IMG/VR virus record: IMGVR_UViG_3300037502_001087
Span: 1 to 26,659 of that record
DNA length: 26,659 nt
DNA from: a virus
Direction: 5' to 3' (one strand)
This document shows positions 1 to 26,197 of the stretch, piece by piece. The position numbers and the translations under genes are program-made. A model generated the notes under the pieces. It had not been told where the DNA came from, did not search any database, and saw nothing but the letters and a program-made list of their open reading frames with translations. Each line of letters begins with the position of its first letter. The stretch's first letter is position 1.

Positions 1-753
1 GTATTGCTTAATTTTAGCATTGGCATTTTTTACTAAGTTATTGTTTAATTTCAACTTCGGAGTGATAGGCATTTTAGCTGGAACTATAGCAACGTTACTA
101 TTATTCTTTAAGCTACCAATAGTACCGTCTAGTGGCGTTGCATTATCAGTACTTGCCCCGTCAGGATCTATATACTGATGAACTACGATCCCTGCTGCTT
201 TATTAGTTAATTCTTTTCCTAATTCCGAATTAGGATCCACAGTGTACGTGATACCATTGGGGTTCGCTCTAAATTTGTATAATCCATCTGGGCCTGGTCT
301 TAGTGGTTCACTGAATAATAAATCACCCCAATAATAGCCCTTACTTCTGTCAGATTTTTCTAGTCCAGGCCATATTTGTGCTATCAGTTGGTGCAACTGA
401 GACCTATCTACTCCCCGATCTTGGTCATATTTAACAAACTGCTCAGGACTAAAAACTTGTCGTCCAGTGCCATCTTTCTTGTTAAACATGTGTTTATCCA
501 TGATACTAAACTGACCTTGACTGTTACGTCCAAATATCAGAGCAGGATAACCATCCCATTTAATAGTAACTTTGGTAGGATTGGCTACTGTGTCTTGTGT
601 AGCCTGTACTGCTCGTTGTGCCCCCTGACTTCCTCCCAAAAATATTAAATCTTCAGGATGGTCTAAGTGACCCTTATCTTCCAAAATGACAATAGGTCTT
701 TCTTTGTAAGAAATTAAATCACGCAAAGCGCCCAATGATTCAGCAAGATTCAT
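1..753 (-). CDS. KWDG-motif phage protein, ligase/nucleotidyltransferase-like (DUF6267-type), 3' end missing
   Basis: I translated this gene by hand because it runs off the left edge. It starts at ATG 753-751 and stays open for 251 codons to position 1. The start overlaps the stop of the upstream 432-residue gene as ATGA, which suggests translational coupling. An A/G-rich stretch (AGAGAAGAAA) lies just before the start. Lys65 begins KWDGYPALIFGR, which matches motif I (KxDG, then Arg) of covalent nucleotidyltransferases such as DNA and RNA ligases. Further on are GDLLF, which resembles a motif III strand, and FRANPNGITY. The order (HLDHPEDLIF, KWDG, GDLLF, PN-ITY) matches a conserved T4-like phage family I remember as DUF6267, whose function is unknown to me. 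Whether it forms a lysine-AMP adduct cannot be read from the sequence. The C-terminus lies outside the window. Confidence 0.7.
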   Translation of the reverse strand, partial: MNLAESLGALRDLISYKERPIVILEDKGHLDHPEDLIFLGGSQGAQRAVQATQDTVANPTKVTIKWDGYPALIFGRNSQGQFSIMDKHMFNKKDGTGRQVFSPEQFVKYDQDRGVDRSQLHQLIAQIWPGLEKSDRSKGYYWGDLLFSEPLRPGPDGLYKFRANPNGITYTVDPNSELGKELTNKAAGIVVHQYIDPDGASTDNATPLDGTIGSLKNNSNVAIVPAKMPITPKLKLNNNLVKNANAKIKQY

Positions 754-2048
754 TTTCTTCTCTTTCTTGATTCGCTTACGGGTGCGGGAGGTGCTGCAGG
801 AGTAGCTGGTTTACTGCCGCCCCCCGGTAATCCTTGCAAGGATTGTCCTGCTCCGATTTTTTTGACTATTTCAGCATGTAGGGCAGGATCAATTCCCTTC
901 AATTTTGCTAGTAAACTTTGAAGTGAATTTACAATTGAATCTGTGCTAGTGCCGGTTTTTGCTGGCGCTGCTGCTGCGGCAGTTCCTGCACCACCTGCTC
1001 CTGCACCACCTGCTCCTGCACCACCTGCTCCTGCACCACCTGCTCCTGCAGGAGCCTCATCGCCACCGTAACCAGGAGCTTGTGATGTAGCAAACAATGC
1101 GTTTGCAAGCTTTAACATAGACTGTTTAAAAGGTTCTAAATTCTTTGGATCATAGCTATCACCTGCAGCCTTTATTAAATTCTGAGTAGTTGTATCTGTT
1201 ATAGGAATACCTCTTAGGTACGTGGGCAAGAAACGCTTTAACCATTGTTCTACTGACTCGGCTTCAGTTAGCATACTTTCAAAAATCATGTTAAGTTTGT
1301 AGTACTTGGTTTCTGCTATAATGTATTTGCCGTTTTTCTTATTTTCTTTAAGAAGTGTTAGACCCAAATCTTTAAAGGTAAAGCCAATAGATTCAAGTAA
1401 TTTGTTGATCCAATATACTTGCCATGCTTCCATCATTTGTCCAGCTTTTAATCTATTAATTGCTGAGTTTGAGAAGTTAGGATCTGCAATGCCTCGTTTA
1501 ATGATTTGTTGTGCTGTGGCTACTGCGTTTTGCCATTCAGGATAATCTTTGCGGTCAGCCATGAAATTTACTAATTCCTTAGCCAAAGCCATTTTTTTAA
1601 CTTTGTTTGGTTCTGCGTTCAGTGTTTGTGCTAAACCACGAACGTAGTTATTGATATTCTGAGATGTTTGTCTTTGTGCTTGCCCCGGAGCCTTTGCATT
1701 TCCTGGTGCAACTTTCGGAGATGCAGGTGCTGCTGGTTCCGTTTTGGGTGGTTCAGCTGGGCTAGCATCTGCGGGTTCGGCGGTTGTTGACGATTTTATA
1801 CTAGGATCAACACGGCCGGCAGCGATTTCACTTTGCAAAGATTTAAAAGCAGCACTGAAAAGGCTGTTTATAAAACGTTCTTTATGTGCTTTGTCTGCGA
1901 CTGATAGTTCCCCTTCTCCTCGGTCTCCGCCGGGTAGAAATCTATTAGCAAACTGCTTTAATGCAGCAGCCCCGTGTGTTCCGAACATTCTAGCAGTTCT
2001 ACCCACTTCATCGATTTGTTGACCTTCTTTAAACTCATTCAGCCTCAT
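750..2048 (-). CDS. Ala/Gly/Pro-rich phage protein of unknown function
   Basis: This 432-residue protein has no motif I recognise. AAGGA lies before ATG 2048, and the start overlaps the upstream gene by 14 bases. The N-terminus (MRLNEFKEGQQIDEVGR) is followed by a Pro/Ala/Glu-rich linker near residues 90-125, a mostly helical middle section (about 130-320), and a Gly/Ala repeat at about 333-353 encoded by a 15-base tandem repeat. The C-terminus is another Pro/Ala-rich tail ending SESRKRRK. The alternation of folded segments and flexible linkers suits a virion or scaffold-associated protein, but this is inference. It is co-transcribed with the 82-residue gene upstream and the KWDG gene downstream, and a late-type promoter lies ahead of the group. 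Confidence 0.75.
   Translation of the reverse strand: MRLNEFKEGQQIDEVGRTARMFGTHGAAALKQFANRFLPGGDRGEGELSVADKAHKERFINSLFSAAFKSLQSEIAAGRVDPSIKSSTTAEPADASPAEPPKTEPAAPASPKVAPGNAKAPGQAQRQTSQNINNYVRGLAQTLNAEPNKVKKMALAKELVNFMADRKDYPEWQNAVATAQQIIKRGIADPNFSNSAINRLKAGQMMEAWQVYWINKLLESIGFTFKDLGLTLLKENKKNGKYIIAETKYYKLNMIFESMLTEAESVEQWLKRFLPTYLRGIPITDTTTQNLIKAAGDSYDPKNLEPFKQSMLKLANALFATSQAPGYGGDEAPAGAGGAGAGGAGAGGAGAGGAGTAAAAAPAKTGTSTDSIVNSLQSLLAKLKGIDPALHAEIVKKIGAGQSLQGLPGGGSKPATPAAPPAPVSESRKRRK
982..1050. repeat. 15-bp in-frame tandem repeat, four perfect copies plus a partial
   Basis: The unit ccacctgctcctgca occurs four times without mismatch at 991-1050, preceded by a partial copy (982-990). On the minus strand it encodes repeated AGAGG pentapeptides in the 432-residue protein. 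Because the unit is a multiple of three, slippage would change linker length without a frameshift. Confidence 0.95.
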
Positions 2049-5624: not shown

Positions 5625-6005
5625 ATGATACAAAATGAGTTTTTCAGAAAACTTAGTGACAATCATCCGTTTATAACAGTATGTTCCTACGCTAATCAAG
5701 ACTACGTAGGGATAATTCAAAATAGGGATGATAACGTTACTACCATTTATGACTACGGGGCCATTATCGAATCAGATGCTAAAACAAAATTTTTAGAACT
5801 CGGTGACGTATGGTGGTGGGAGAGTAACAGATTGATTCCTATAAATTTATTTTTAAAAGAGGAATGGGCTCCTTTTAGACCCTATCTAAAAACATTTGCT
5901 AATAAAAGTCTCACAATACTACACGGTCCAGTTACTAGCATGAATGAGCTTCATAAGCGTAGGTCTAAAAGACGTAGTATAACTCTAGTTAAACGATTAC
6001 CGTAA
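5625..6005 (+). CDS. Conserved T4-like phage protein of unknown function (sole plus-strand gene)
   Basis: This 126-residue protein is the only gene on the plus strand. It resembles a family I recall from T4-like marine phages, with YVGIIQNRDDNVTTIYDYG near residues 27-45, LGDVWWWESNRLIPINLFL near 64-82 and a basic C-terminus (HKRRSKRRSITLVKRLP). The basic tail suggests nucleic-acid contact, but no domain is recognised. No clear Shine-Dalgarno precedes ATG 5625. It is convergent with the DnaE-like gene, and their coding regions overlap tail-to-tail by 17 bases (5989-6005), so transcription in one direction would make antisense RNA to the other. The late-type box at 5504-5511 suggests late expression. 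Confidence 0.8.
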   Translation: MIQNEFFRKLSDNHPFITVCSYANQDYVGIIQNRDDNVTTIYDYGAIIESDAKTKFLELGDVWWWESNRLIPINLFLKEEWAPFRPYLKTFANKSLTILHGPVTSMNELHKRRSKRRSITLVKRLP

Positions 6006-6570
6006 CTTCTTCTAACAGGTTCATATGAACTATAACTAATTGGGCATAAGCAATCGCATGTGACTTTTTAAATGTATATCCTGTACTATCTTTATCCCAC
6101 ACTGTTTTTGATATTTCTTTCCAAGTTTTCCCCAATAAATGCTTTTTGCCCGGTCGTATGATAGCCAAGAACATAGCTAGTCTAGTAATACTATCTATTG
6201 ATTCAGGCATATTACGCAAAGTAGCATATTGATTGTTAAGATGAATAAGCTTTTCTACAAAATCTTTGTTTCTTAGGTTTGACCAATTTGGTTCACGCAT
6301 CAACTCAATTAAATGTTCCTCATCACGTACTTGGTTGTATACATGTACGTTTAGAAAGTCTAATTTTAAATAGCCCCGTTGTTCAGCTTCTGTATAATCT
6401 ATAGAAGCCATATCATTTACGGGATCATAGGGTATTTCAGTGACATGCACACCTGTAGCATGTTTTCGTGTTGGTTGTACCTTTAACATTGCAGAAGGAA
6501 TATGGTCTATCAGTGATAAAATTTTTTCTCTATCACCAAAATCTATATCAATATCGCTATTAAATTTCAT
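5989..6570 (-). CDS. Miniature DnaE-like protein with DNA polymerase III alpha palm motifs
   Basis: This 193-residue protein carries, in the correct order, the core motifs of bacterial DNA polymerase III alpha (DnaE, normally about 1100 residues). SDIDIDF (5-11) matches the PDxDxDF catalytic strand. HATGV (37-41) matches HAxGV. GYLKLDFL (66-73) matches GLxKxDFL, which holds the third catalytic Asp. IIRPG (137-141) matches the ALFRPG motif, and FKKSHAIAYA (167-176) matches FxKSHAxAYA. The PHP, thumb, beta-binding and OB domains are absent and the spacing is compressed. I chose ATG 6570, since the upstream in-frame TTG at 6582 has no ribosome site. It overlaps the cytidylyltransferase gene by 11 bases. 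It could be an active mini-polymerase, a regulator or a degenerate but conserved relic. Confidence 0.75.
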   Translation of the reverse strand: MKFNSDIDIDFGDREKILSLIDHIPSAMLKVQPTRKHATGVHVTEIPYDPVNDMASIDYTEAEQRGYLKLDFLNVHVYNQVRDEEHLIELMREPNWSNLRNKDFVEKLIHLNNQYATLRNMPESIDSITRLAMFLAIIRPGKKHLLGKTWKEISKTVWDKDSTGYTFKKSHAIAYAQLVIVHMNLLEEVTVIV

Positions 6571-7051
6571 GTGATTTGACAACTAATTCAGGATCATGCT
6601 GAGGAGGAACATTAGACACAACTTCTTCATTTTTTAGTTTTTCTAATCTAGCAGTACGTGCCCTGAGTTCACTAGAACTATAATCATGTTGACGTTTATG
6701 ATAGTGTAGTTCAATACCATTCTGAATGCAATACTGTTTACCTGTAAAATCACGATTTAGGTATTCTTCACTTAGAAAACGAATATGAATAGTCTGTGTC
6801 ATAAGCAATTGCAACAAATCATATTCTGTTGAGTACACTAATATCTCGTCCACATATTTACATGCTTGTAATTGCACATACCGTTCATAAACACTTTGAA
6901 TTGGTTTATTTTTTACTCCGGGTCTGTCAACTGTAGGATCGACCTGTAGTGCTACAATCAAGTAATCACATAATTGTTTTTCCATTTTAAGCATTGTTAC
7001 ATGACCGGCATGAAAGAGATCAAAACTACTGCAATTAAATCCTATCTTCAT
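6560..7051 (-). CDS. TagD-like cytidylyltransferase
   Basis: This 163-residue protein is a nucleotidyltransferase of the HxGH superfamily. FDLFHAGHVTML places the HAGH signature at residues 14-17, and YSSSELRAR near 124-132 corresponds to the second nucleotide-binding motif (ISTSxI-like). The length and motifs match glycerol-3-phosphate or related cytidylyltransferases, which join CTP to a small phosphorylated alcohol or sugar. The substrate cannot be told from the sequence. AAGGA precedes ATG 7051, which overlaps the epimerase stop as ATGA. With the RmlC-like gene next to it, a role in nucleotide-sugar or envelope/glycan modification is plausible. The last 30 residues extend past the catalytic domain. 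Confidence 0.85.
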   Translation of the reverse strand: MKIGFNCSSFDLFHAGHVTMLKMEKQLCDYLIVALQVDPTVDRPGVKNKPIQSVYERYVQLQACKYVDEILVYSTEYDLLQLLMTQTIHIRFLSEEYLNRDFTGKQYCIQNGIELHYHKRQHDYSSSELRARTARLEKLKNEEVVSNVPPQHDPELVVKSHEI

Positions 7052-7515
7052 TTACTGTCCTTTTCGCTTAGTATAATTTCTATGTCACCGGGCCAATCAA
7101 TACCATAATCAGTGTAATTGAAGTTTTCTTCTTGATCTTTATTATAAGGGGCATCTACTATGTATTGAACTTTTGCAGTTTCAGACAAAACTAGGTACCC
7201 GTGTGCATAATATGGTGGAATGAGTATAGCATTAGAACCATCCAGTTCAACTGCTACCCACTGCTTAGTGTCAACGTTTAACGCAACATCAAATACGGTT
7301 CCAATTACCGCGGTTACAAACTTTGTTTGATCTTGACGATGCATACCACGAAGCACACCTTTTCTAGATGTAGCTAGATTCAACTGCCTAAATGTGCCTC
7401 GCATAGGCTCATCTTCACTGATTTTCCACAATTCACAAAAATCACCTCTGTGATCAACGTGTTTTTTGTGTTCTATAAATCTTACGCCTGGTAGCATTTC
7501 TCCGTAAATCTTCAT
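7048..7515 (-). CDS. RmlC-like sugar epimerase (dTDP-4-dehydrorhamnose 3,5-epimerase family)
   Basis: This 155-residue cupin protein has the RmlC order of motifs: DHRGDFCELW (21-30), RQLNLATSRKGVLRGMH (43-59, with His59 at the catalytic His position), FDVALNVDTKQW (75-86) and PPYYAHGYLVLSETA (100-114). RmlC enzymes epimerise C3 and C5 of a dTDP-keto-sugar during rhamnose-type sugar synthesis. The protein is a little shorter than bacterial RmlC (about 180 residues), as is usual for phage homologues. AGGTAGGA precedes ATG 7515, which overlaps the exonuclease stop by 4 bases. The rest of the dTDP-sugar pathway is not in the window, so it may act on a host-made sugar nucleotide. Confidence 0.88.
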   Translation of the reverse strand: MKIYGEMLPGVRFIEHKKHVDHRGDFCELWKISEDEPMRGTFRQLNLATSRKGVLRGMHRQDQTKFVTAVIGTVFDVALNVDTKQWVAVELDGSNAILIPPYYAHGYLVLSETAKVQYIVDAPYNKDQEENFNYTDYGIDWPGDIEIILSEKDSK

Positions 7516-8075: not shown

Positions 8076-8469
8076 TTAAATACTCCATTGCTCTTTTACA
8101 TCTGTCTGCATCATCGCCTAAGTTGCCTAATCCTAAATTGCACTTGTGGCACAACCAACCACGAAATTCTTCAGTTTCATGATCGTGATCAGCGACCCAT
8201 ACAGATTTTTTGTTCTTACCATAAGTTACTAATTCATCTGCTGTACGCAAGCATATAGGACATTTATGATCTTCAGGTATAGTTGGTGCAGACTTTTTAA
8301 TCTTTGCAACTAACTTACCCTGTTTCTTAGCACAGGGTCTACATTCATAACGTAGATATCCTTTGCTACCTTCTTTGGCAAAGTTCCAAATAGGAACCTG
8401 CTGTTTACACATAGAACAGAATTTAGTTTCTTCTTCTACACCGTCAAAAAAAGTTGATAAAGTATTCAA
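8065..8469 (-). CDS. 49: Recombination endonuclease VII (Holliday-junction resolvase), gp49 family
   Basis: This 134-residue protein has the endonuclease VII signature: CPIC (70-73), [20 protein letters not shown] (91-110) and NLGLGN just after. The DHDH histidines form the His-Me finger active site, and the Cys70/73-Cys107/110 pairs hold zinc. In T4 the enzyme debranches DNA before packaging. An extra N-terminal CSMC/CRPC pair (18-21, 43-46) suggests a second zinc ribbon not found in the minimal T4 form. The start is taken as TTG 8469, which overlaps the dioxygenase stop as TTGA; no ATG is available before the first zinc ribbon. Translation probably depends on coupling, since only a weak GGA lies upstream. 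Confidence 0.9.
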
Positions 8470-9170
8470 GTATTGCTATTCCAAATGTTATCTAAGGTTT
8501 TTACATCATCTATTATACTACTATTCAGATAATTAAACAATAGTGCTTGCCGTGGATTATTCTGTGGATTGGGCATACTACTATGCAACACTCTACAGTT
8601 ATAAAACAACACACTACCTTTCGGTAATTTAGTTTGGACATAATTTTTCATGTACCAAGAATTGTAAAAACCTTGATAACACAAATTGATGTTAAAATCT
8701 AGTAATTGACTTTTCGGAACAACACCCGTAACACCATTGTTCTCATCTAAATCATAAAGTGAACAGATAGCTTGAACGCCTAATAATCGTTTATCATAGT
8801 TGTACTTTTTAAATCTATGCGGCGTATCAACGTGTGGATTAACCCATTTACTGTTAGGATTTATAGTGACGATATCGCTAGCATACCATTCAGGATCAGA
8901 TAAGTATTCACCCACTTTATGTATAAGAATGTCGTTGATATGTTTGACTTCAGGCCAATCCATAACCATTTGACTCCACCACACTGCAATGTCGGGTAGA
9001 TTTTTTATCTCATCTCTTTCAGCATACTTTTTGCTTGTGCTAGATGCACGTACTGGATACAGTGTGTTAAGTTTTAAATTGATACTGTCAATGATATTCT
9101 CTGGTATCAACTTTTCTAGGATAATAAATCCCGATCCTTCTGTTAATTCTGTTTTAATCAATTTTGCCAT
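8466..9170 (-). CDS. 2-oxoglutarate/Fe(II) dioxygenase, phytanoyl-CoA hydroxylase-like
   Basis: This 234-residue protein fits the PhyH-like double-stranded beta-helix oxygenases. PHVDTPH gives the iron-binding HxD (His113, Asp115), and [20 protein letters not shown] gives the distal His196 and the 2-oxoglutarate-binding Arg207. [10 protein letters not shown] (182-191) is the typical preceding strand. These enzymes hydroxylate small molecules or modified bases. The substrate is unknown, although its place beside sugar-nucleotide enzymes would fit making or decorating a small molecule or glycan. There is no Shine-Dalgarno; the start lies inside the preceding gene (13-base overlap), so translational coupling is likely. 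Confidence 0.85.
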
Positions 9171-9718: not shown

Positions 9719-9958
9719 TTACGACCACCTTAATATAAACCAAGAAAATTCATTTTGATATCTGAAACGAAACTCGCTATGGTCTTTAAAGTAAATCCAT
9801 CTACAATGACGTTCAGGATTAGATGTGTTTTCGTATAACCAAATGACCATATTTTCATGTGTTTTATGATTTTTTCTATCTATAGAAATAGTATACCAAT
9901 TAGGGTTGGTATTTTCCCAACCCCTTTCACTATCAAAATAGTTACTTGCGTATGCCAT
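9719..9958 (-). CDS. Hypothetical protein, 79 residues, aromatic-rich
   Basis: This small protein is unusually rich in Trp, Tyr, Phe, Asn and His (GWENTNPNWY, WLYENTSNPERHCRWIYF, FSWFILRWS) and has no signal peptide. Its ATG shares one base with the stop of the protease gene (TAATG), so the two are translationally coupled. The coupling suggests a role with the protease, such as an inhibitor, chaperone or partner, but there is no motif to test this. Confidence 0.6.
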   Translation of the reverse strand: MAYASNYFDSERGWENTNPNWYTISIDRKNHKTHENMVIWLYENTSNPERHCRWIYFKDHSEFRFRYQNEFSWFILRWS

Positions 9959-12012
9959 TAAAAAGATTTAATCATAGACAATCCAAAAGCTACATCATCA
10001 ACACTACTTTGTCCTCGATAGTTTTGCCTCTTTTCTAAGAACAACATCGACTTGATATCTCTAGTGTTTTCAAATTTATGATACAGTCCCATTCTTAATT
10101 CTTTAACATTTGCAGATAGATTAACCTTTGAATTTTGTATGACATTAAACTCATTATCTAATCCTATCGGAGCCACTACATCAGCCATAGCTTTATAAAC
10201 CGTTACAGGAGAGTATAACATCAAACCCAGTGTATGATTACCTAAAGAACGTTCTGCTCCTAAAGTCCAACTTTGGCTTAATACATTTCCGATGGATGTA
10301 ATGTTTTCGCTGCTAGACTTAGTAAAAGTAATACCTGTGTTGTACGACATATACAACTTGGAAGTGTCAATAGTCTTATTTACATGTAAAGATGTATAGT
10401 ATGTATTACCAGACTTGTTGTTGCCATCACCAACAAAGCTACCTACACTATTTCCTAACCAAGTTGTTTTCTCAGAAAATGATCCAGTAGATACAGTAAC
10501 TTGAACATCATTATATTTTTTAGAATAGCTAACATCAAACATTCCTAAAGAATCATCATTGACATTTTTATAAACATTTACGTTCATGTTGTTATGTAAT
10601 GTAGCACTAAACTTATTAGTATAATTATTGAACAACACATATGGATTTTTATTATCGTATACCATGAGTGCTTGTGCTAAGTTAAATTCTCTTGGTGGCA
10701 CTCTTGCAGTCAATATCTCCCCGGGGGTGTAAAAATCTCTTTCGAAAGAATCAACAACCATGAGTTTTGTAAGTCCACCTGTACTTGCACTACCGCCTGT
10801 ATATACTAGTGGTTTTACTGCTGATAAACTAGGTCCAGCCAATCTTCCTGTTGTGGGAATCCCCAAATTACCCACTGGGCGTGTCGCTTTTTCTAAATCT
10901 AACAGACCCTGACCATGCACATATAAGTTGTAGTTGGGTATATTTTTATTTGCTGTTACTAATAGAAGTTTAGCAACATTTGAACCCTTCATCTGCGGCC
11001 ACATTTGATGTATAATTGCGGCTGCACCAGAAATAACAGGTGCTGACATAGAAGTCCCTGTCATTGTAGCAAGCCCTGTAGGTTGCAAGGAAGCGTCATA
11101 TTTTTGTGGTATTCCCGCAGTCTTAGGAACGGTACTTAAAATGTTTGTTCCCGGGGCCATCAAGTAAAATTCCCAAGTTTTATATTTGTCAGCACAATAC
11201 TGAGTATTCATAACACCCTTAACTGTAGTTTGGCACAAGTGTGCGGCACCGTTACTAGTATTATTAATAGTATTAGTTGCTGGATTATAATTTCCAGCAA
11301 TTAGTATTCTACCCCCAAATACAAGCGACCCTTTAGTATCGGTCAATGTTGCTAATCCTGCCATGCCTTGAGACCATTTAGTACCATCATTACCTGCCGA
11401 TATGACAATGACGGATTCACCCTGAAGTGCTTGTGCCCAAGAAGAAGCATTAAACAAACTACTAATAGGTAAACTTCCGGTATTAGTGAATTTTGTTTGA
11501 TACACTCCATTGGACATTGACTTAGCAGACAAGTAGCTCTGAGAAAGAGTCCAACCCAAACTCATATTGATTACGTCTACACCGGTAGAATTGATCCAAC
11601 TAGCGGCTGTTAGCAAATTATTAGTTCCCACCATACCATTATCAGTAACCTTACCTATAACTAATTTAGCATCGTAGGCTACTCCATGTATTCCTATACC
11701 ATCCCTAGCAGCAGCGGCTATTCCTGCTACATGAGTTCCGTGACCAATTCTATCTATAGGCGTTCCACTTCCAGTAAAATCTCTAATTAATAGAATCTTG
11801 TCTTTGAATTGGTTACTACTAGTATCGATTCCACTATCAAGAATTCCAATAACACTATCTCTACCTGTATATCCACGAGCATATGCTGAACTAGCATTGA
11901 TAGATTTAAGTGCGTTACTTAAATTATATTCTGTAGTTTGAAATTGTGTTTGAGAGAATACATTACTACCTACTAACAACAGTAATGCAGAAACTACTAT
12001 TTTTGATTTCAT
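9958..12012 (-). CDS. Secreted subtilisin-like (S8) serine protease with autotransporter-like C-terminal domain
   Basis: This 684-residue protein starts with a Sec signal peptide (MKSKIVVSALLLLVGSNVFS, likely cleaved near residue 20). The S8 domain runs from about 40 to 375. Asp59 lies in GILDSGID, His91 in GHGTHVAG, the oxyanion Asn208 in SAGND and Ser321 in GTSMSAP, so the catalytic set is complete. Residues about 380-684 lack protease motifs. They alternate polar and hydrophobic residues in strand-like runs and end in FGLSMIKSF, with a C-terminal Phe as in outer-membrane beta-barrels. This is the layout of a subtilisin autotransporter, though shorter than usual. AGGAG lies before ATG 12012. 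It may act on the host surface, in lysis or in superinfection exclusion; these roles are inference. Confidence 0.9.
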   Translation of the reverse strand: MKSKIVVSALLLLVGSNVFSQTQFQTTEYNLSNALKSINASSAYARGYTGRDSVIGILDSGIDTSSNQFKDKILLIRDFTGSGTPIDRIGHGTHVAGIAAAARDGIGIHGVAYDAKLVIGKVTDNGMVGTNNLLTAASWINSTGVDVINMSLGWTLSQSYLSAKSMSNGVYQTKFTNTGSLPISSLFNASSWAQALQGESVIVISAGNDGTKWSQGMAGLATLTDTKGSLVFGGRILIAGNYNPATNTINNTSNGAAHLCQTTVKGVMNTQYCADKYKTWEFYLMAPGTNILSTVPKTAGIPQKYDASLQPTGLATMTGTSMSAPVISGAAAIIHQMWPQMKGSNVAKLLLVTANKNIPNYNLYVHGQGLLDLEKATRPVGNLGIPTTGRLAGPSLSAVKPLVYTGGSASTGGLTKLMVVDSFERDFYTPGEILTARVPPREFNLAQALMVYDNKNPYVLFNNYTNKFSATLHNNMNVNVYKNVNDDSLGMFDVSYSKKYNDVQVTVSTGSFSEKTTWLGNSVGSFVGDGNNKSGNTYYTSLHVNKTIDTSKLYMSYNTGITFTKSSSENITSIGNVLSQSWTLGAERSLGNHTLGLMLYSPVTVYKAMADVVAPIGLDNEFNVIQNSKVNLSANVKELRMGLYHKFENTRDIKSMLFLEKRQNYRGQSSVDDVAFGLSMIKSF

Positions 12013-12020
12013 TACGACTC

Positions 12021-12722
12021 CTAATAACCTGCAGTTAATAACATTTTTCTAACTTCTTTTACATCATCGATATTTTTGATAAGTTTCAATGCCCATTGTT
12101 CAGGGTTAATGTAATCCATGATCATCTTTTCTTGTGTTTCATTCAACTTTTCAAGAAATTCTCTGCCGCTTTCGCTATGATAAAGCATCCATGGACTGAT
12201 CTTACCTTTAGTTATTTCATAACATATGCGGTTGGTATTACCATATCGTAAAACATCTTTTGTGAATATCTTTTCGTTTTCTGCTAGTTGAATAGTAGTC
12301 TCTATACTTCTAGCCACTGCATCTAGTGCATTTTCAGTACGCAGATATTCTATCAAAAATTTAGTATAGTTTGTATCCGTATTCCAAGTATCTATTTTGA
12401 TTTGGTTCTTAACTAACCAGTCAGCATATCTTGGAACATTGATGACATTGGCATCTATACAATATAAACCAAATTTTACAAAGGCACCATAGTACGCTGA
12501 CTTAATAAATTCTTCGTAAGTTTTAGTTTTCTTACTCGCAGAGTTTTTCCTGTAAAACTGCACCCATGCTTGAAATCCAATTCGGTTACATGGTCTGTCT
12601 TTTTCTAACCAACGATGTTTGTATTCACAAATATGCTTTAGTATTGTTGACTCACGAAGGAACGTGCGTCCGCAAAACTCACAGCCAAATTTAGACTTAT
12701 CCGTTTCCTCTGTCTTTTTCAT
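12021..12722 (-). CDS. Conserved T4-like phage protein with N-terminal C2H2-type zinc finger
   Basis: This roughly 233-residue protein begins with a zinc-finger-like segment, CEFCGRTF followed by LKHICEYKHRW, giving a CxxC...H...C/H set in its first 45 residues. The rest is helical, with YEEFIKSAYYGAFVKFG and a run of aromatic residues. It matches a family I remember from T4-like cyanophages whose function is unassigned. The ATG at 12722 is preferred over the in-frame TTG at 12731. It overlaps the upstream gene by 26 bases, and its stop codon lies directly before the AGGAG of the protease gene. It probably binds nucleic acid or a replisome partner; this is inference from the finger and from the uvsW neighbourhood. 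Confidence 0.75.
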   Translation of the reverse strand: MKKTEETDKSKFGCEFCGRTFLRESTILKHICEYKHRWLEKDRPCNRIGFQAWVQFYRKNSASKKTKTYEEFIKSAYYGAFVKFGLYCIDANVINVPRYADWLVKNQIKIDTWNTDTNYTKFLIEYLRTENALDAVARSIETTIQLAENEKIFTKDVLRYGNTNRICYEITKGKISPWMLYHSESGREFLEKLNETQEKMIMDYINPEQWALKLIKNIDDVKEVRKMLLTAGY

Positions 12723-13293
12723 ATTGTTCAATATCGTTATCGGTAACTAATTCATTCAATACTTCAAGGTCAGAAATTTTCATGTTTGGATATATCTGAC
12801 CTAAATGAACTTTTCTTTTTTGTTGGCTAACATAAACCTTAGATAACTCATCAATATCTTTGGGATCAGCATTACTATAAATTTTACTATAGTATTCTTT
12901 TATTTCTTTCTGTGTGGCTGTCTCTTTGTATTTGCCTACTTTGTCTCTGATGTGAGGTATCCATTGATGAAATTGTTTACCTAGTCCTGGACTAGCACTG
13001 CATAACATTAGCCATTGTAATTTAGGATGCTTCTGTACGAATTCTGCAAATAAATGTTTGTTAGCATATTCATTGGTACTCATTACATAATACCTTGATA
13101 CACCTTCACTTCCTTTGATGGCACTCATCCAATGAGTTAACATGAAGGGCACTACCTTTTTCTTTTGTTCTTCGGTAAGCCTGTCATAATACGCATAATC
13201 TTTTTTGTCTATAGCAGCAAGGATTTCGAAAAGGTCAACCTCTACCTTTTCGAATTTTTCGTCTTTTTCAAGTTTTGGTTTTCGTGTCGCCAT
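12697..13293 (-). CDS. Conserved T4-like phage protein, possibly a clamp-loader small-subunit (gp62) relative
   Basis: This 198-residue protein is mostly helical. It has a segment with MSTNEYANKHLF, then LQWLMLCSASPGLGKQFHQWI. The arrangement of a helix, an LQWL strand and a GxGKQxHxW turn loosely resembles the T4 gp62 pattern (a YLMAAVPRGKRYGKW-type stretch). GPGLGKQ is not a Walker A: there is no following Ser/Thr. The relation to gp62 is from memory and weak. Start TGATG overlaps the upstream stop, and the 3' end overlaps the zinc-finger gene by 26 bases, so these genes form one coupled unit with uvsW upstream. Confidence 0.55.
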   Translation of the reverse strand: MATRKPKLEKDEKFEKVEVDLFEILAAIDKKDYAYYDRLTEEQKKKVVPFMLTHWMSAIKGSEGVSRYYVMSTNEYANKHLFAEFVQKHPKLQWLMLCSASPGLGKQFHQWIPHIRDKVGKYKETATQKEIKEYYSKIYSNADPKDIDELSKVYVSQQKRKVHLGQIYPNMKISDLEVLNELVTDNDIEQYEKDRGNG

Positions 13294-24451: not shown

Positions 24452-26197
24452 TTACTTTCTTATAATTCTTAGTATAGCATCGAGGTCTTCTTGACCCTCT
24501 TTCACATCTTTCTTGTGAGCCTTATCCATTGATTTGTCCAATACCTTTTCAGCATCTTTCTCAGCGTCTTTGGCTTTAACTGGTGTTGCTTTACCTTCCG
24601 GGCCTTTGTCATCATCATCACGTGTGCCTTTATAGCCCTCGGAATCCATTTCATTTATTTCTACTGATTCATTAGCTCCTACTAGTTTACCTACAGCACC
24701 TTTAGGTCCTACCTTTTCTGTTGGGCCTAGTTGACCCACACGCTTTTGATTGGCATCAAGGTCTTCCGCCACACCTTGTTCATCCAACTTATCATACTTG
24801 GCACGAATCTGTGCCATCTTTTCTTTGCTAGCGCCATCACGACCCGCTTTGCGTAGTGCATCCATGCCTGCCTTACCATACTTTTTATTGCCTAGATATG
24901 CCTGCAATCCACTTTCTTCTACGTCCTCTTCTTCTAAACCAATACGTTTAGCATGTGCTGCTAATCCTTGGCTGGTTGTACGTGTACCTGCAGGAAGTTT
25001 ATCTAAGTCTTGTTGTGTTACTTTCCAATCTCCGCCTTGCGCCTTGCGTTGGTAGGCAGGAACATTCATTTTCTTTTTAGCAGCTTCAGCATCATCGATT
25101 TCATCTTCATCCAAATCTAAAGCATTTAATCTTGATTTTTCTGTAGCCTTATTGTGTGCTAGTGTTTCAGCTCCAGGGGCTTCTGCGAGACTTTCTGCCC
25201 ATTCTTCTAATTCTTTAACTTGTTTCATTTCACCCAAATTTTTGCTTAACTTGTTTAGTATAGGCATTACGCTTTCGATTCTTGGATCTAATGTTTCTTG
25301 AACAAATAATTCATTCAATGTATTATCATCGCCTTCATTTTCCATCAATGTAGGAGTCCAGCTTTCAAAATATGCAGTATAACCACGATGACCACGCATT
25401 TTTCCTAGTGTTTCACGCAGGTCAGTATAATGATTCAATCCTGCTTCCACTAAACGCTGTGCAGATTCATTGAATTGATTTCCACGAACAGCACGAACAA
25501 AGCCGGCCATTTTGGTGTATTCTTCGCACAGTGACTTAATATGATTCCAACGCTCGTCATTTGGAACTCCACCTTCTGCTAGATGTCTAGCATATACTTG
25601 TGCTATTCCAGGCTTGATTGTGGGTGCTAAGATTCTTTCCCCTTGTGTATTTTCCAAGAAGATTTTAGCTATGTTTCGATAACGCTGTTCACCTTCTTGT
25701 ATCTGACGGGTGTGCTGCAAAATAATTTTAACTGTAGGAATGTTGTCGTTATAGCTTGCAGCTTTCCCCATTGGATAGTATCCTTCAGCGATTTGTTCTT
25801 TCTTTTTCATATATGTCCTTTGTGCCATATCACTATCTAATTTTTCTTTGGGCTCTAAGCTAAAGCTTAACTGGCGAGAGTGCGCCCATTTTTTAAAAAA
25901 CTTTAATAATCCATACCAACTATCATCATACGGAGCAGAAGCTGATTTTTCACCTGCTTTGTCGGCTATATCTTTATCGTAATATACTATAAGAGTGCGG
26001 GCCTTATCTATAGTAGCCCAGGCGTCGTCAATGTCTTTACCGTCTTGTTTAAAGGTAAATCTGAAAACGTCTGCTTCTTCAGGAGGAACAGTTTTTCCAG
26101 CTTGACTAACATCACTATCTCTAGAAACAGGGTTATAACCTCTAGTGTCTAGTAGATCGTATAATTCACGGTTGACGGATTCGTTATTTTTTGGCAT
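24452..26197 (-). CDS. 581-residue phage protein of unknown function, next to terminase
   Basis: This protein has an N-terminal folded part with LYDLLDTRGYNPVSRDSD, ADVFRFTFKQDGKDIDDAW and SWYGLLKFFKKWAHSRQLSF (about 1-115). A middle part has YRNIAKIFLENTQGERI, KPGIAQVYARHLAEGG (about 175-215) and a long helical stretch to about 330. The C-terminal 200 residues are highly charged and repetitive (Asp/Glu/Lys/Ala-rich). The GERILAPTIKPGIAQVYARHLAEGG-type core appears in phage proteins I have seen, but no function is known to me. Its place after terL and before a terminator suggests a virion or assembly role. No Shine-Dalgarno precedes ATG 26197; a GATAAATA octamer does. Confidence 0.75.
   Translation of the reverse strand: MPKNNESVNRELYDLLDTRGYNPVSRDSDVSQAGKTVPPEEADVFRFTFKQDGKDIDDAWATIDKARTLIVYYDKDIADKAGEKSASAPYDDSWYGLLKFFKKWAHSRQLSFSLEPKEKLDSDMAQRTYMKKKEQIAEGYYPMGKAASYNDNIPTVKIILQHTRQIQEGEQRYRNIAKIFLENTQGERILAPTIKPGIAQVYARHLAEGGVPNDERWNHIKSLCEEYTKMAGFVRAVRGNQFNESAQRLVEAGLNHYTDLRETLGKMRGHRGYTAYFESWTPTLMENEGDDNTLNELFVQETLDPRIESVMPILNKLSKNLGEMKQVKELEEWAESLAEAPGAETLAHNKATEKSRLNALDLDEDEIDDAEAAKKKMNVPAYQRKAQGGDWKVTQQDLDKLPAGTRTTSQGLAAHAKRIGLEEEDVEESGLQAYLGNKKYGKAGMDALRKAGRDGASKEKMAQIRAKYDKLDEQGVAEDLDANQKRVGQLGPTEKVGPKGAVGKLVGANESVEINEMDSEGYKGTRDDDDKGPEGKATPVKAKDAEKDAEKVLDKSMDKAHKKDVKEGQEDLDAILRIIRK

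What the first reader, a model, noticed from the sequence alone, without database searches (positions are those of the whole stretch)
9958..12012. Phage-encoded subtilisin with signal peptide and autotransporter-like C-terminal barrel
Seen: a Sec signal peptide, a full S8 catalytic set (Asp59, His91, Asn208, Ser321) and a C-terminal 300 residues with beta-strand-like alternation ending in Phe. Known: autotransporters carry a secreted passenger and an outer-membrane barrel ending in Phe. Inference: the phage may put a protease on the surface of its Gram-negative host, for receptor shaving, superinfection exclusion, lysis or feeding on host envelope protein. A phage that encodes a complete type V-like secreted protease is unusual.
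Basis: partly seen in the sequence, partly recalled or inferred. Interest (0 to 1): 0.75.

Follow-up and report, generated by a model that had tools for sequence, protein, structure and literature searches.

The report
Phage-encoded outer-membrane subtilisin protease
Large T4-like phages from environmental samples carry, as a swappable extra gene, a protein-cutting enzyme fused to a barrel that should sit in the outer membrane of the bacterium they infect, so an infected cell may be made to wear a viral protease, probably on its surface.

Summary
A 684-aa ORF on the minus strand (12012→9958) has a Sec signal peptide, a full S8 subtilase domain and a 220-residue C-terminal domain ending in Phe. 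AlphaFold2 models residues 400-684 as an outer-membrane β-barrel (pLDDT 93). Every listed close structural match in the PDB (VIA-align) is an outer-membrane barrel, including the NalP, EspP, Hbp and BrkA autotransporter translocators.

It is not an oddity of one contig. Full-length homologues occur in many IMG/VR contigs, including ones with T4-type capsid, portal or terminase. The four active-site residues are invariant in 44 homologues, all 43 non-redundant complete homologues end in the outer-membrane aromatic signal, and dN/dS is 0.07-0.10. Bacterial chromosomes hold relatives with the same barrel.

In the window's own lineage it is a clean one-gene insertion: a close relative has the flanking genes directly adjacent without it. 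The window is a T4-like jumbo-type phage fragment.

It differs from classical type Va autotransporters: no Pfam PF03797 match, no room for a β-helix stalk, and a strand pattern that leaves the side on which the protease sits unproven. Phage entries are already auto-annotated in UniProt; I found no paper describing them. Cleaving host surface proteins, for example to exclude other phages, is the likeliest role, but untested.

The parts
9958..12012 (-). S8 subtilase fused to a C-terminal outer-membrane barrel, 684 aa
   Evidence: ORF and translation; PF00082; homologues
12018..12022 (-). Shine-Dalgarno AGGAG, 5 nt before the ATG, overlapping the TAG stop (12021-12023) of the upstream gene
   Evidence: sequence
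11953..12012 (-). Sec signal peptide, residues 1-20 (likely cleavage after FS, before Q21)
   Evidence: sequence, and conserved pattern in homologues
10927..11865 (-). Peptidase S8 catalytic domain, residues 50-362
   Evidence: Pfam PF00082 E 2.4e-33; structural matches to subtilisins, Z about 24
11836..11838 (-). catalytic Asp59
   Evidence: invariant in 44 of 44
11740..11742 (-). catalytic His91
   Evidence: invariant in 44 of 44
11389..11391 (-). oxyanion Asn208
   Evidence: invariant in 44 of 44
11050..11052 (-). catalytic Ser321 (GTS motif)
   Evidence: invariant in 44 of 44
10618..10884 (-). linker, residues 377-465: IPTTGR motif, invariant D421 and R425, helices 445-454 and 457-461
   Evidence: alignment and model
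9961..10617 (-). outer-membrane beta-barrel, residues 466-684, 11-12 antiparallel strands, C-terminal Phe684 (9961-9963)
   Evidence: AlphaFold2 pLDDT 93.2, pTM 0.87; PDB matches are outer-membrane barrels; terminal aromatic
12021..12731 (-). upstream neighbour (phrog_11058), conserved in jumbo-phage relatives; left border of the insertion
9719..9958 (-). downstream neighbour, 79 aa; its start overlaps the protease stop by one base; right border of the insertion

Best explanation
This is an accessory phage gene for an outer-membrane-anchored subtilisin that works like a compact subtilase autotransporter. During infection the Sec system exports it and removes the signal peptide; the C-terminal domain is inserted into the host outer membrane by the BAM machinery through its terminal aromatic signal; and the S8 domain is held at the cell surface, where it cleaves surface proteins of the infected cell or its neighbours. 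The most likely benefit is envelope remodelling that blocks superinfecting phages or keeps progeny from sticking to receptors on debris. Shown here by computation: gene, export signal, intact conserved active site, barrel fold, purifying selection, phage context, insertion as a cargo gene. Inferred: protease activity, outward orientation, substrates and benefit.
For: Signal peptide, S8 domain and barrel in autotransporter order. Barrel model pLDDT 93.2; all 50 listed VIA matches are outer-membrane barrels: FapF Z 13.3 (3.7 A, 203 aligned), NalP translocator 1uyn Z 12.4 (3.9 A, 199 aligned), EspP 8bo2 Z 12.2, BrkA 11.5, Hbp 11.4. Terminal aromatic within the last two residues in 43 of 43 non-redundant homologues, with Gly at -8 in 40 of 44 and mostly hydrophobic residues at -5, -7 and -9. 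Catalytic residues invariant, and a Cys pair (C260, C273) kept in nearly all. dN/dS 0.07-0.10, low in both halves. Every bacterial protein found through the barrel also matches the S8-containing N-terminal part of the family profile. T4-type Gp23 capsid, portal or terminase on contigs carrying it, up to 335 kb. Neighbouring cargo includes envelope-sugar-type genes: RmlC-like PF00908 and an HldE-like nucleotidyltransferase in the window, GalE- and DegT-like genes elsewhere. NalP and SphB1, of similar architecture, cleave surface proteins (PMC9977779, PMC9289746).
Against: The barrel does not match PF03797. Predicted tight turns at 473/476, 500/503, 548/551 and 590/593 would, by the usual short-periplasmic-turn rule, put the start of strand 1 on the outer side, unlike the classical topology; orientation of the protease is therefore open. 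No T4-type late promoter lies near the gene, so timing is unknown. No host is known. Nothing here tests superinfection exclusion.
Confidence: 0.62

Rival explanations
1. Outer-membrane-anchored but periplasm-facing protease: the barrel is an anchor or plugged pore, and the S8 domain stays in the periplasm, where it degrades envelope proteins or host factors, perhaps helping lysis.
For: The predicted strand and turn pattern fits 11 long strands, with the chain entering strand 1 from the outer side and a roughly 17-residue helix (445-461) just before it; if that helix runs up through the pore, the N-terminal part is periplasmic. No PF03797 match.
Against: Domain order, terminal signal and match to the NalP translocator are those of surface-delivering subtilases.
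Confidence: 0.18
2. Nutritional auxiliary gene: the surface protease digests extracellular or neighbouring protein so that the infected cell gains amino acids for phage production. The same protein and location, with a different benefit.
For: Optional cargo gene in diverse environmental phage contigs; strong purifying selection.
Against: No peptide transporter or peptidase was identified among the recurrent neighbours I looked at, which are sugar-nucleotide, queuosine-type and nucleotide genes.
Confidence: 0.2
3. Lysis accessory: the protease weakens the envelope at the end of infection.
For: Export to the envelope.
Against: No lysis gene was identified next to it in the recurrent neighbourhoods; absent from most close relatives, whereas lysis functions are essential.
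Confidence: 0.06
4. Virion protein (tail-associated protease or prohead protease).
For: Phages do use proteases in virions and proheads (general knowledge).
Against: Cleavable Sec signal plus outer-membrane barrel and terminal signal; embedded among replication genes; absent from close relatives.
Confidence: 0.03
5. Bacterial gene on a mis-binned or chimeric contig.
For: True bacterial homologues exist.
Against: The same gene with the same flanking genes in about 14 contigs, phage hallmark genes on several contigs carrying the family, and clean empty sites in relatives.
Confidence: 0.01

Closest known systems
Subtilisin-like type Va autotransporters (NalP, SphB1, Ssp, EprS; 'Group 15' in PMC9289746)
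   Same: Signal peptide, N-terminal S8 protease, C-terminal outer-membrane barrel with terminal aromatic. Best sequence match in the PDB is the 'Extracellular serine protease' 8e7f (E 2.6e-24), which I take to be the Ssp passenger of PMC9977779; EprS model hit E 1.8e-18, far below its cut-off; NalP barrel Z 12.4.
   Different: About 645-690 aa in the window's branch, against roughly 1000 or more for the known ones (general knowledge); no room for the ~200-aa beta-helix stalk; no PF03797 match; encoded by phages; non-lipidated signal in the window (a lipobox only in L060).
Bacterial chromosomal S8 proteases with this barrel (L083, L086 and others)
   Same: Homologous over both domains, terminal Phe in most; found with the barrel profile in 24 of 398 Pseudomonadota genomes.
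   Different: Host chromosomal context; many of the distant ones carry an extra 100-150 residues between protease and barrel.
A0A6J5TBB6 'Peptidase S8/S53 domain containing protein' and 'Autotransporter beta-domain containing protein' entries of uncultured Caudovirales phages
   Same: A0A6J5TBB6 (689 aa) matches the barrel model with TM 0.71, E 2.4e-17; same length and S8 annotation.
   Different: Automated annotation only; the likely source paper for such entries (my guess, PMC6802176) does not mention protease or autotransporter in its main text.
Bacillus phage subtilisin-like proteases (SP-15, Goe3, BSP14)
   Same: Phage-encoded S8 catalytic domain.
   Different: Gram-positive hosts, catalytic part only, 25-42% identity, no barrel match.

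Membership tests
Peptidase S8 (subtilase, PF00082) | Match above the Pfam gathering score over the catalytic domain | tested here: met
   116 bits against 21.8, residues 50-362; 44 of 44 homologues match
Peptidase S8 (subtilase, PF00082) | Asp-His-Ser triad and oxyanion Asn | tested here: met
   D59, H91, N208, S321 invariant in 44
Peptidase S8 (subtilase, PF00082) | Proteolytic activity | not testable with these tools
   needs expression and assay
Type Va autotransporter | N-terminal Sec signal peptide | tested here: met
   inspection of window and homologues; no dedicated predictor was available
Type Va autotransporter | C-terminal outer-membrane beta-barrel on the same chain as the passenger | tested here: met
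   model pLDDT 93.2; structural matches are outer-membrane barrels
Type Va autotransporter | Terminal aromatic of the outer-membrane insertion signal | tested here: met
   43 of 43 within the last two residues; last residue in 42 of 44
Type Va autotransporter | Translocator domain of family PF03797 | tested here: not met
   no match in any of 44 homologues at E 0.1 or 10 bacterial relatives at E 1
Type Va autotransporter | 12 strands with the linker helix in the pore | tested here: inconclusive
Type Va autotransporter | Passenger delivered to the cell surface | not testable with these tools
   needs shaving or labelling of cells
Subtilisin-like autotransporters (Group 15) | About 200-aa beta-helix after the protease domain | tested here: not met
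   only residues 363-465 lie between protease and barrel, part of them helical

The most novel reading that the evidence does not exclude
Large T4-like phages use an exchangeable surface subtilisin, delivered by a compact autotransporter with its own barrel type, to shave host receptor proteins during infection: proteolytic superinfection exclusion, or prevention of progeny loss on debris, with phages and bacteria trading the gene.
Probability: 0.3. Interest if true: 0.82.

Novelty: new variant of a known kind. Interest (0 to 1): 0.6.

Why it matters
Phage proteins that act on the host's outer surface are usually lipoproteins, small membrane proteins or sugar-modifying enzymes (general knowledge). 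An outer-membrane-anchored viral protease, widespread in environmental T4-like phages and shared with bacterial chromosomes, would add proteolysis to the ways a phage remodels its host's envelope. The 2024 superinfection-exclusion review does not mention proteases, nor does the 2022 autotransporter review mention phages. The clean empty and occupied sites make the gene easy to test by deletion or addition once a host is in culture.

Tried and rejected
Close DNA relatives in cultured phages: none by megablast. Barrel in cultured phages: no tblastn match even at E 0.1. PHROG family for the barrel: none for the window protein. Barrel profile against PDB sequences: none. The structure comparison of the full-length model was filled by subtilisins, so the C-terminal part was folded alone. 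T4 late promoter TATAAATA: two sites, no more than chance and not near the gene. tRNA and Rfam: none. Host inference failed: no tRNA and no cultured close relative. Contig contamination was rejected through synteny and hallmark genes. Literature searches for phage-encoded autotransporters or S8 auxiliary genes gave nothing on point. IteS anti-phage and mycosin NCBIfam hits are far below cut-off and reflect the shared S8 domain.

Full report
WHAT IS THERE. The reported ORF is real and lies on the minus strand: ATG at 12012, stop at 9958-9960, 684 aa. A Shine-Dalgarno AGGAG (12018-12022) overlaps the stop of the upstream gene, and the stop of the protease overlaps the start of the next gene by one base, so the gene is embedded in an operon-like row of minus-strand genes. 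Pfam gives Peptidase_S8 over residues 50-362.

THE C-TERMINAL DOMAIN. With ten sequences the full-length model already showed antiparallel strands. Residues 400-684 folded alone with 44 sequences gave mean pLDDT 93.2 and pTM 0.87. Foldseek and VIA-align return outer-membrane beta-barrels as the listed best matches: FapF, COG4313 channel, KdgM, NanC, NalP translocator (Z 12.4), EspP (12.2), BrkA (11.5), Hbp (11.4) and others. Sequence agrees: alternation within strands exceeds shuffles (p 0.0018); 43 of 43 non-redundant complete homologues have an aromatic in the last two residues; Gly at -8 and hydrophobic -5, -7, -9 are mostly kept. This is, in my view, an outer-membrane barrel beyond reasonable doubt, pending experiment.

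HOW FAR IT IS AN AUTOTRANSPORTER. Order of parts and export signals are those of a subtilase autotransporter. Three things differ. No homologue matches PF03797, nor do ten bacterial relatives. There is no room for the beta-helix stalk typical of subtilisin-like autotransporters (PMC9289746). And the strand list can be read as 11 long strands: turns 473/476, 500/503, 548/551 and 590/593 are tight while 482/491, 514/535, 564/571, 618/624 and 663/672 are longer and, except the first, better conserved, which by the usual rule puts the start of strand 1 on the outer side. Whether helix 445-461 plugs the pore, and from which side the protease hangs, needs coordinates or an experiment. So I say it works like a subtilase autotransporter, not that it is a classical type Va member.

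DISTRIBUTION. A first scan of viral contigs with the single protein found 12 full or partial homologues at 36-77% identity. The profile of ten gave 117 (best 80 kept), and the profile of 44 gave 299 candidates at tblastn E 1e-3 (best 80 kept; the deeper tail may include matches to the S8 domain only). Contigs that carry it also carry T4-type Gp23 capsid in 7 of 25 tested, and T4 portal or terminase in several; most are fragments, so absence means little. There is one copy per contig in the 32 checked; in one (L037/G031) it was reported in two adjacent pieces. Among annotated cultured phages nearly all matches are Bacillus phages, through the catalytic part alone.

BACTERIAL KIN. The barrel profile finds relatives in 24 of 398 sampled Pseudomonadota genomes and 6 of 300 of one order; each protein found also matches the S8-containing N-terminal part of the family profile. 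L083 sits by rml-type sugar genes and L086 (Hylemonella) by branched-chain amino-acid transporter genes, so these are chromosomal (identities read from the translations). In the tree 41 phage and 4 bacterial sequences form one clade (100/100) apart from 16 distant bacterial ones; L093 (the L083 gene) groups with three phage sequences (100/100), and L094-L096 fall elsewhere, so well-supported branches force at least two changes between phage and bacterial carriers. The window's nearest kin are all phage, and it is not a fresh capture.

CARGO GENE IN A JUMBO-TYPE PHAGE. Neighbouring core genes have their nearest cultured homologues in jumbo phages such as PA5oct, Phosso, Atu_ph07 and SCTP-2; PA5oct keeps a similar order without the protease. 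Of the 80 best environmental relatives of the upstream gene, 55 could be judged: 8 carry the protease, 47 do not. L201, 82% identical in the upstream gene, has the upstream stop and the start of the 79-aa downstream gene on adjacent bases, where the window has the 2-kb protease gene: a clean one-gene insertion or loss. Elsewhere the family sits in another recurring context with QueE-, GTP cyclohydrolase-, phosphoribosyltransferase- and sugar-nucleotide-type genes.

SELECTION. Between copies 77-95% identical dN/dS is 0.07-0.10, with catalytic and barrel halves both constrained (dS is saturated for the window-L001 pair, so the other pairs weigh more). Both the enzyme and its membrane part matter to the phage.

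FUNCTION. NalP and SphB1, of similar architecture, trim proteins on their own cell surface (PMC9977779, PMC9289746). By analogy the phage protein should cut surface proteins of the infected cell or its neighbours. Close to it in the window are an RmlC-like epimerase and an HldE-like nucleotidyltransferase, and sugar-nucleotide genes recur near it elsewhere, which fits envelope remodelling but does not prove it. Superinfection exclusion is my first choice (about 0.3 on its own), nutrition second, lysis a distant third.

NOVELTY. Auto-annotated phage copies exist in UniProt-derived structures, and subtilase autotransporters are a known kind. What appears undescribed is a widespread, compact, phage-borne family with its own barrel type and a demonstrable insertion site. 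I class it as a new variant of a known kind.

Noticed in passing
window 5989-6582 (-): A 197-aa DnaE-like DNA polymerase III alpha fragment (phrog_11778), conserved in jumbo-phage relatives in the same gene order; far too short to be a polymerase.
   Followed up: partly
window 6560-7515 (-): RmlC-like dTDP-sugar epimerase (PF00908) beside an HldE-like nucleotidyltransferase (PF01467), two possible envelope-sugar genes in the same variable region as the protease.
   Followed up: partly
window 8466-9170 (-): PhyH-type dioxygenase (PF05721), kept in relatives that lack the protease (L201, L204).
   Followed up: no
L005, L007, L031, L053 and others, within about 3.5 kb of the protease: The protease in other phage lineages sits with QueE-like, GTP cyclohydrolase I, phosphoribosyltransferase and, in some, TGT/DpdA-like genes, a context of 7-deazaguanine metabolism.
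   Followed up: partly
L060:804-4511: A 1235-aa phage homologue with a lipobox (LTAC) like the lipidated autotransporters NalP and SphB1, and a very long Thr/Val/Lys-rich N-terminal extension.
   Followed up: no
L050, L055-L067: Homologues with about 80-140 extra residues between signal peptide and protease domain; length varies among close relatives.
   Followed up: no
window 750-2048 and 24452-26197 (-): Two large proteins, repeat- or low-complexity-rich, ending in short basic tails; the first has no PHROG match, and neither has a counterpart in the family loci compared.
   Followed up: no
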